Position numbers and translations under genes: made by a program. This document shows positions 30,367 through 31,065 of a DNA stretch of 64,000 nt, piece by piece. Location of the stretch: contig CALFBI010000008.1 in NCBI GenBank assembly GCA_937951675.1, forward strand, positions 1-64,000. The letters are read 5' to 3'. Source of the stretch: an uncultured Verrucomicrobiales bacterium. Its GTDB lineage: Bacteria > Verrucomicrobiota > Verrucomicrobiia > Verrucomicrobiales > Akkermansiaceae. A model generated the notes under the pieces. The model was not told the DNA's origin. It saw nothing but the letters and a program-made list of their open reading frames with translations, and did no database searches. Numbering within the stretch: the first letter of the stretch is position 1; every line of letters starts with the position of its first letter.

Positions 30367-30397
30367 GTTTTTGGCGACCATAGCCAGATCTACCTGA

Positions 30398-30692
30398 TAA
30401 AGGATGGGACGCGCTCCCTATTTTTAAATGAGGTAAATAACTTATTTGTTTCATTCTGTGCTTGCTTTTCTAATTGCAGGCGTTAAGAAGTGCCCGTCCG
30501 CCTTTTCATTCTTTATTTTTAAGCATTTTCTTTTCCTCCTCTAATATATTTTTTATCCGGAATTTTTATTCCGACGATCATGCTTACTTTTTTATTCTCT
30601 CTGCCAAATTTTGGCAAACCCGCTATCAGTTGATTGGAGCTCTGGCCAATTGATAGTTTTTTTTAAAACAGAGCTTTTATACAAGAAATACA
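30398..30692 (+). promoter_or_regulatory. Long A/T-rich leader of the RRM protein gene with serial hairpins
   Basis: No gene is visible in this stretch. It contains pyrimidine-rich sequence, then three hairpins: CGGAA/TTCCG (about 30557-30573), TGCCAAA/TTTGGCA around one T (30602-30616), and the terminator-like stem at 30623-30656. Such long leaders are common in cold-shock RNA-binding protein genes; a role in temperature or self-regulation is inference. Confidence 0.6.
30623..30664 (+). terminator. Terminator-like hairpin inside the 5' leader of the RRM gene
   Basis: CTATCAGTTG (30623-30632) pairs with CAATTGATAG (30647-30656) over ten bases with one G-U, followed at once by eight T. It ends 28 bases before the ATG of the RRM gene, so transcription from any promoter upstream must read through it: an attenuator, or the end of a small leader RNA. 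Confidence 0.75.
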
Positions 30693-30938
30693 ATGAACAT
30701 CTACGTAGGAAACCTTCCTTATTCCGCTTCTAATTCTGATCTCGAGCAAGCTTTTGGCCAATACGGTCAAGTGCTTAAAGCAAACATCATTATGGACAGA
30801 GAAACAGGAAACTCAAAAGGATTTGGTTTCGTTGAAATGGCTTCTTCAGAAGAAGGCAACAACGCGATCCAAGGACTTCACGACAGCGACCTTCAAGGCC
30901 GTAACATGAAAGTGAACGAAGCACGTCCACGCGACTAA
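30693..30938 (+). CDS. Small RRM-domain RNA-binding protein
   Basis: 81 codons forming a single RNA recognition motif. RNP2 is IYVGNLPY and RNP1 is KGFGFVEM, with the helix DLEQAFGQYGQVLKANII between them and the last strand NMKVNEARPR. Proteins of this type are abundant RNA chaperones, often cold-inducible, in cyanobacteria and Verrucomicrobiota. It is a single-gene unit with its own leader and double terminator. The start has A-rich sequence but no Shine-Dalgarno motif. Confidence 0.96.
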   Translation: MNIYVGNLPYSASNSDLEQAFGQYGQVLKANIIMDRETGNSKGFGFVEMASSEEGNNAIQGLHDSDLQGRNMKVNEARPRD

Positions 30939-30961: not shown

Positions 30962-31018
30962 TTTCAGGAGGTTGCCTCCTGAAAAGCCCGTTGCTCTTTG
31001 AGTTTACGGGCTCTTTTT
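30962..31018 (+). terminator. Double hairpin terminator after the RRM gene
   Basis: First stem TTTCAGGAGG/CCTCCTGAAA with loop TTG; second stem AAGCCCGT (30984-30991) with ACGGGCT (31006-31012) followed by seven or more T. The second is a classical intrinsic terminator. Confidence 0.9.
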
Positions 31019-31065
31019 TTGCCTTGAAACCAAGGTTTTAGTGAAGGTTTGTTAGTTAGGAGGCG

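What the first reader, a model, noticed from the sequence alone, without database searches (positions are those of the whole stretch)
30556..30664. Attenuator-like structure in the leader of an RRM RNA-binding protein gene
Three hairpins, the last a full intrinsic terminator with eight T, precede the start codon by 28 bases. An RNA-binding protein that could bind its own leader and change readthrough would form an autoregulatory or cold-sensing circuit. Alternatively a small RNA is made from the leader.
Basis: partly seen in the sequence, partly recalled or inferred. Interest (0 to 1): 0.6.

Follow-up and report, generated by a model that had tools for sequence, protein, structure and literature searches.

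The report
Pseudoknot RNA leader of RRM gene
The RNA in front of this small RNA-binding-protein gene folds into a conserved hairpin-plus-pseudoknot that also precedes the same kind of gene in other bacterial phyla, so the apparent terminator is one stem of what is probably a feedback switch by which the protein controls its own production.

Summary
The three hairpins and the U8 tract are really there, 28 bases before the start codon of a single-RRM protein gene. The third hairpin is not best read as a stand-alone terminator. Its loop (GAGCUCUG, 30637-30644) pairs with CAGAGCUU (30669-30676) downstream of the U8 tract, giving an H-type pseudoknot 16 nt before the ATG. Compensatory changes support both stems in 11 family leaders. 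An unbiased Rfam scan gave Chlorobi-RRM (RF01697) as best hit, full length, but at 22.5 bits (cut-off 45). Before looking, I predicted that true Chlorobi-RRM RNAs carry the missing 3' strand just beyond the end of the Rfam model; they do. A covariance model without that stem then found the leader in front of RRM genes in Marinimicrobiota (11 of 13 genome-wide hits) and Gammaproteobacteria, with the second stem again present. The window leader is therefore a divergent verrucomicrobial relative of Chlorobi-RRM, which is itself an incompletely described pseudoknot. The U8 tract is nearly unique to this genome and lies in a pseudoknot loop. Autoregulation is the likeliest function, more probably of translation than by termination, but no binding or expression was tested. 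The U8 tract could still terminate in this species.

The parts
30519..30547 (+). candidate promoter TTAAGC-N17-TAATAT (predicted start about 30554); a second candidate is 30446-30474
   Evidence: weak consensus match only; the gene stands alone after the terminator of the superoxide dismutase gene, so a promoter must lie in 30372-30600
30558..30573 (+). first hairpin, CGGAAU-UUUU-AUUCCG
   Evidence: folding; not visibly conserved in relatives, not formally tested
30602..30616 (+). P1 hairpin UGCCAA-AUU-UUGGCA
   Evidence: folding; matches the first hairpin of Chlorobi-RRM, where it covaries
30622..30632 (+). stem A, 5' strand (GCUAUCAGUUG)
   Evidence: covariation in A1, A3 and A4; second hairpin of the RF01697 model
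30637..30644 (+). stem B, 5' strand (GAGCUCUG), in the loop of hairpin A
   Evidence: 8 bp with 30669-30676; covariation of B alone 87.9% of cells paired against 22-52% in slid controls
30647..30657 (+). stem A, 3' strand (CAAUUGAUAGU)
   Evidence: as for the 5' strand
30657..30664 (+).
   Evidence: U8 not conserved among relatives
30669..30676 (+). stem B, 3' strand (CAGAGCUU), 16 nt before the ATG
   Evidence: pairs with 30637-30644; the equivalent in Chlorobi lies just past the end of the Rfam model
30677..30692 (+). A-rich unstructured spacer before the start codon, no clear Shine-Dalgarno
   Evidence: sequence; in Marinimicrobiota homologues AAGGA or GAGGAG lies in this spacer
30693..30938 (+). 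single-RRM RNA-binding protein, 81 aa; RNP2 IYVGNL and RNP1 KGFGFVEM present
   Evidence: Pfam RRM_1 E 6.4e-22; the only match to this protein in the genome

Best explanation
The 30597-30692 leader is a cis-regulatory RNA made of a hairpin (P1) followed by an H-type pseudoknot (stem A 30622-30632/30647-30657, stem B 30637-30644/30669-30676) that ends 16 nt before the AUG of the RRM gene. It is a divergent verrucomicrobial relative of the Chlorobi-RRM RNA, whose own pseudoknot strand lies outside the published model. Inferred mechanism: the RRM protein binds its leader (P1 and the pyrimidine-rich or U8 loop 3 are the likeliest contacts), stabilises the pseudoknot and, perhaps by adding further protein along the A-rich spacer, blocks ribosome loading. 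Excess protein would thus shut off its own translation. Shown here: the structure, its conservation, its position and its association with RRM genes. Inferred: protein binding, translational level, and sign of control.
For: Both stems covary in window plus ten family leaders: 83% of cells paired against 25-39% in slid controls, 11 pairs changed on both sides, 0 of 500 shuffles reach the covariation score. A blind Rfam scan gives RF01697 as best hit, over its full length 1-73 and at the right place and strand. The predicted extra strand was then found in true Chlorobi-RRM loci (Chlorobi alignment 96% of cells paired, stem B 93.5%). Stem B alone in 29 sequences from four phyla: 87.9% against 22-52%, 20 doubly changed cells against 5.2 +/- 1.8. 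Model R1, in which stem B is not a pair, hits G000 only at this leader (65 bits). Among RRM loci of other phyla its seven best new hits all end at or within 3 nt of the RRM start. In 199 Marinimicrobiota-phylum genomes 11 of 13 hits lie directly before an RRM gene. Alignment-free test: 26 of 163 RRM leaders beat all 60 shuffles, 2.7 expected. By analogy, T4 gp32 represses its own mRNA through a pseudoknot upstream of the ribosome-binding site (PMC535899), and CLIP found an RbpB site on the mRNA of the RRM protein RbpB in Bacteroides (PMC11697453).
Against: No expression, probing or binding data. The window scores below Rfam's cut-off for RF01697 (22.5 against 45). A pseudoknot at -17 need not block a ribosome. 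U8 after stem A could terminate transcription before stem B is made. Covariation counts are cells, not independent events, and some relatives are close. The window's core stem B differs wholesale from the GUGC/GCAC of most relatives, so the window rests partly on one-sequence complementarity.
Confidence: 0.6

Rival explanations
1. Transcription attenuation: hairpin A plus U8 terminates most transcripts near 30664, and binding of the RRM protein or formation of stem B changes readthrough.
For: Hairpin A plus U8 is present. Stem B excludes the inner four pairs of the folded terminator hairpin. Other leaders in the family (L150, L156) end in a strong hairpin plus U5-U6 before the ATG.
Against: The U tract is not conserved in the ten closest relatives and is interrupted in most Chlorobi members. 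The stem is A/U-rich and the terminator scan did not list it. The conserved stem B leaves most of stem A intact, so it is a poor antiterminator.
Confidence: 0.13
2. Thermosensor: the pseudoknot or hairpins change with temperature and control cold or heat expression without needing the protein.
For: Rbp1, a cyanobacterial RRM protein, is required for cold adaptability (PMC9333190 abstract).
Against: No Shine-Dalgarno or start codon is sequestered in the window. The strong base pairs and conserved loop letters (UUUGUGC, GCCAA) fit protein recognition better than melting.
Confidence: 0.1
3. The leader binds another ligand (metabolite or sRNA) and the link to RRM genes is incidental.
For: H-type pseudoknots are a frequent riboswitch fold (general knowledge).
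Against: In one search, 11 of 13 genome-wide model hits precede RRM genes, while riboswitches usually precede varied metabolic genes. There is one copy per genome in G000.
Confidence: 0.07
4. Only stem A and P1 are real; stem B in the window is chance complementarity.
For: Folding a single strand without pseudoknots prefers hairpin A. Stem B letters in the window differ from relatives.
Against: The 8-bp register coincides exactly with the conserved register in the alignment; 2 of 3000 shuffles match; both stems are individually stable (-12.2 and -10.9 kcal/mol).
Confidence: 0.06

Closest known systems
Chlorobi-RRM RNA (Rfam RF01697; Weinberg et al. 2010, PMC2864571)
   Same: position before an RRM gene, P1 hairpin GCCAA..UUGGC, hairpin A with a UUUGUGC-type loop in relatives, full-length model alignment to the window; Chlorobi members carry the same stem B
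   Different: score 22.5 against cut-off 45; Verrucomicrobiota, not Chlorobi; stem B strands rewritten to GAGCUCUG/CAGAGCUU; loop 3 is U-rich then A-rich; the Rfam model stops before the 3' strand of stem B and shows no pseudoknot
T4 gene 32 translational operator (PMC535899)
   Same: pseudoknot 5' of the ribosome-binding region of the gene for a single-strand nucleic-acid-binding protein, followed by a less structured A/U-rich stretch
   Different: no relation of protein or RNA sequence; here the pseudoknot lies 16 nt before the AUG and carries a P1 hairpin; binding not tested
Ribosomal protein S15 autoregulatory leaders (PMC4137082)
   Same: autogenous structured leaders of an RNA-binding protein, differing between phyla
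   Different: a different protein and different RNA folds; only the logic is alike
Intrinsic-terminator attenuators
   Same: hairpin followed by U8 in a 5' leader
   Different: terminator tail not conserved; the conserved alternative pairing makes a pseudoknot and is not a proper antiterminator

Membership tests
Chlorobi-RRM (RF01697) | reaches Rfam gathering score of 45 bits | tested here: not met
   22.5 bits, E 0.0084 over 161 bases and 4227 families
Chlorobi-RRM (RF01697) | two-hairpin layout over the full model length | tested here: met
   model positions 1-73 aligned to 30597-30669
Chlorobi-RRM (RF01697) | located directly upstream of an RRM protein gene, same strand | tested here: met
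   RRM_1 at 30693-30938
Chlorobi-RRM (RF01697) | found in Chlorobi | tested here: not met
   window genome shares its family with G080, whose leader is identical to that of Akkermansiaceae bacterium UBA985 (L002)
Pseudoknotted RRM leader as defined here | stem A, stem B and A-B-A'-B' order with covariation | tested here: met
Intrinsic-terminator attenuator | hairpin followed by a U tract | tested here: met
Intrinsic-terminator attenuator | terminator conserved upstream of orthologues | tested here: not met
   longest T run 1-4 in the ten close relatives
Intrinsic-terminator attenuator | regulated termination in vivo | not testable with these tools
   no RNA data
Autogenous translational operator (T4 gp32 type) | pseudoknot upstream of the ribosome-binding region of the protein's own gene | tested here: met
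   stem B ends at 30676, ATG at 30693
Autogenous translational operator (T4 gp32 type) | the encoded protein binds the leader and represses translation | not testable with these tools
   no binding or expression data

The most novel reading that the evidence does not exclude
A pseudoknotted leader RNA is a widespread autoregulatory element of bacterial single-RRM proteins, present at least in Chlorobi, Marinimicrobiota, Gammaproteobacteria and Verrucomicrobiota, with its sequence largely rewritten between lineages. The Rfam family Chlorobi-RRM is a truncated view of it, and RRM proteins commonly regulate themselves through such leaders, as ribosomal proteins do.
Probability: 0.6. Interest if true: 0.7.

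Novelty: new variant of a known kind. Interest (0 to 1): 0.58.

Why it matters
Small RRM proteins are common in many bacteria, and what they bind and how they are controlled is mostly unknown. A conserved pseudoknot directly in front of their own genes gives a concrete natural RNA target for the protein, extends and corrects a known RNA family, and offers a simple system for testing autoregulation by a bacterial RRM protein.

Tried and rejected
Rfam at gathering thresholds on the window and 20 related loci gave nothing at the leader; only the relaxed scan showed RF01697. RF01697 run over 97 family genomes gave only weak hits, apart from the window mostly where chance would put them. The relaxed Rfam scan of close relatives gave no RF01697 hit, so they are linked through the alignment and model R1, not through Rfam. 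R1 on the other Akkermansiaceae leader types found nothing: those are other leaders, although the g14 type shows the same A-B-A'-B' order with covariation. R1 in 398 Pseudomonadota genomes found nothing, but it also missed its own positive control, so this search is uninformative. My first alignment-free pseudoknot score, without a fixed distance to the start codon, was not discriminating and was replaced. A downstream promoter within the leader was considered: the best match (30630, TTGATT-N16-GATAGT) overlaps stem A and is weak. Literature search found no description of a pseudoknot in Chlorobi-RRM; only one open paper names the motif, and supplements could not be read.

Full report
What is there. 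The window carries a single-RRM gene (30693-30938, 81 aa) that stands alone between a superoxide dismutase gene with its own terminator and a phosphoribosylglycinamide formyltransferase-like gene on the other strand. The stretch folds better than shuffles (z -2.9). The RRM gene is the only match to this protein in the genome.

The loop of the third hairpin, GAGCUCUG (30637-30644), is complementary to CAGAGCUU (30669-30676), which lies beyond the U8 tract and 16 nt before the ATG. Hairpin A (30622-30632/30647-30657) and this stem B together make an H-type pseudoknot: loop 1 of 4 nt, two bases between stem B's 5' strand and stem A's 3' strand, loop 3 of 11 nt. A and B are each stable (-12.2 and -10.9 kcal/mol as duplexes). 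Only 2 of 3000 dinucleotide shuffles of the window leader give an equally good arrangement.

Conservation in the family. The window's genus has no other genome here, but a neighbouring genus (g13) has orthologues 54-67% identical, with leaders that MAFFT aligns without help. On that alignment stems A and B are 83% paired against 25-39% when the partner is slid, with 11 pairs changed on both sides and no shuffle reaching the covariation score. The window's stem B is rewritten on both sides relative to GUGCGUAG/CUAUGCAU of L111 and still pairs over all eight positions. The U8 tract is not shared: the longest T run in the ten relatives is 1 to 4.

Link to Chlorobi-RRM. A scan against all Rfam families without a score cut-off gave RF01697, Chlorobi-RRM, as the best hit, over its full length, exactly on P1 and hairpin A. 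The score is 22.5 bits against a cut-off of 45, so it is not a member by Rfam's rule. The same model run on the whole genome has this leader as its only hit (E 0.025). The model consensus has the loop UUUGUGC, the same letters as stem B in the g13 relatives, and it ends before any partner. I therefore predicted a GCAC-containing strand immediately downstream in true Chlorobi-RRM RNAs. Loci fetched from Chlorobi genomes show it...CUAUCAAUGCACAUG... and ...GAUCAAAGCAC.... In 25 Chlorobi leaders P1, A and B are 96% paired against 31-40% slid; stem B is 93.5% paired, although in Chlorobi alone it varies little.

Further phyla. Alignment A3 (window, g13, Chlorobi) was turned into model R1 with P1 and A as pairs and B left out. 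R1 scored over RRM loci from other phyla gave seven new leaders before RRM genes, ending at or within 3 nt of the start codon: L062 and L007 (Marinimicrobiota), L011, L064, L030, L033 and L058 (Gammaproteobacteria; 48 down to 17.6 bits, the last four marginal). An eighth weak hit (L078, E 0.5) did not lie at the start codon. Each of the seven has a stem B of its own letters, for example UGGGCAUUGA/UCAAUGCCCA in L030. Genome-wide in 199 Marinimicrobiota-phylum genomes R1 gave 13 hits at E 0.01, of which 11 are directly before RRM genes; the other two have E near 0.01 and are about what chance allows. With sequences from four phyla aligned together (A4), stem B alone is 87.9% paired against 22-52% slid, with 20 doubly changed cells against 5.2 +/- 1.8 in shuffles. 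An alignment-free search for the same architecture in 163 RRM leaders found 26 that beat all 60 of their shuffles (2.7 expected), 10 of them among 71 leaders from other phyla. A sister genus type in the family (g14) shows the same strand order with covariation.

How it most likely works. Shown: a conserved P1 hairpin plus pseudoknot, directly before the translation start of RRM genes, one copy in this genome. In Marinimicrobiota a Shine-Dalgarno sequence lies in the spacer just after stem B, so the pseudoknot abuts the ribosome-binding region. Inferred: the protein binds its own leader and lowers translation. The closest worked example is T4 gp32, which nucleates on a pseudoknot and spreads over the ribosome-binding site (PMC535899). 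For bacterial RRM proteins, RbpB of Bacteroides was cross-linked to its own mRNA and autoregulation was suggested (PMC11697453). The likely contact sites are P1 and the pyrimidine-rich loop 3, which in the window became U8. Whether U8 also terminates transcription in this species is open and testable.

Novelty. The leader is a divergent relative of a known RNA family. The pseudoknot and the spread to Verrucomicrobiota, Marinimicrobiota and Gammaproteobacteria are not in the Rfam model, and I found no description of them in the papers I could search. That is a new variant of a known kind, not a new kind.

Limits. All evidence is from sequence. Cells in the pair counts are not independent events. 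The g13 relatives do not individually reach RF01697 in Rfam; the link runs through the alignment. The Pseudomonadota search was insensitive. Transcription start sites are guesses.

Noticed in passing
L092, L095, L096, L098, L109, L165, L176, L181, L183, L188, L189 (about 130 nt before RRM genes): A different, strongly conserved leader (GGAGNGUUGNCAG..UCGGUGGUNAUCUGAAACCCGAUU.CGGGAACAGUC) before RRM paralogues in several Akkermansiaceae genera; no Rfam match in the three tested (L092, L098, L189).
   Followed up: partly
L150 and L156 (241-303), also L152, L157, L160: RRM paralogue leaders in genus g9 end in a hairpin plus U5-U6 about 18-20 nt before the ATG (-24 to -25 kcal/mol, z about -5 to -6 in the two folded): better attenuator candidates than the window.
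   Followed up: partly
L018, L043, L053 and about ten other Comamonadaceae RRM leaders, last 60 nt before the ATG: Conserved GGGACUCCAUCGCU...AGGAGUCCC: a hairpin that sequesters the Shine-Dalgarno sequence, apparently a different regulatory leader for RRM genes in Burkholderiales; folding support is modest.
   Followed up: partly
L008, L012, L072, about 60 nt before the ATG: Shared CCCGGGAAUUAGCCCGGGUUUU-type hairpin upstream of the Shine-Dalgarno of RRM genes.
   Followed up: no
L106-L108, L132-L143 (g14), L110, L144-L149 (g11): The same A-B-A'-B' pseudoknot order with unrelated letters (ACGCCAU/AUGGCGU; CGCUGUU/AACAGCG); in g14 the single-stranded parts carry a repeated GGUCUC. Covariation was tested for the g14 set only.
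   Followed up: partly
window 30984-31020: The RRM gene appears to end in its own terminator (AGCCCGU..ACGGGCU followed by T7), preceded by a second hairpin UUUCAGGAGG/CCUCCUGAAA.
   Followed up: no
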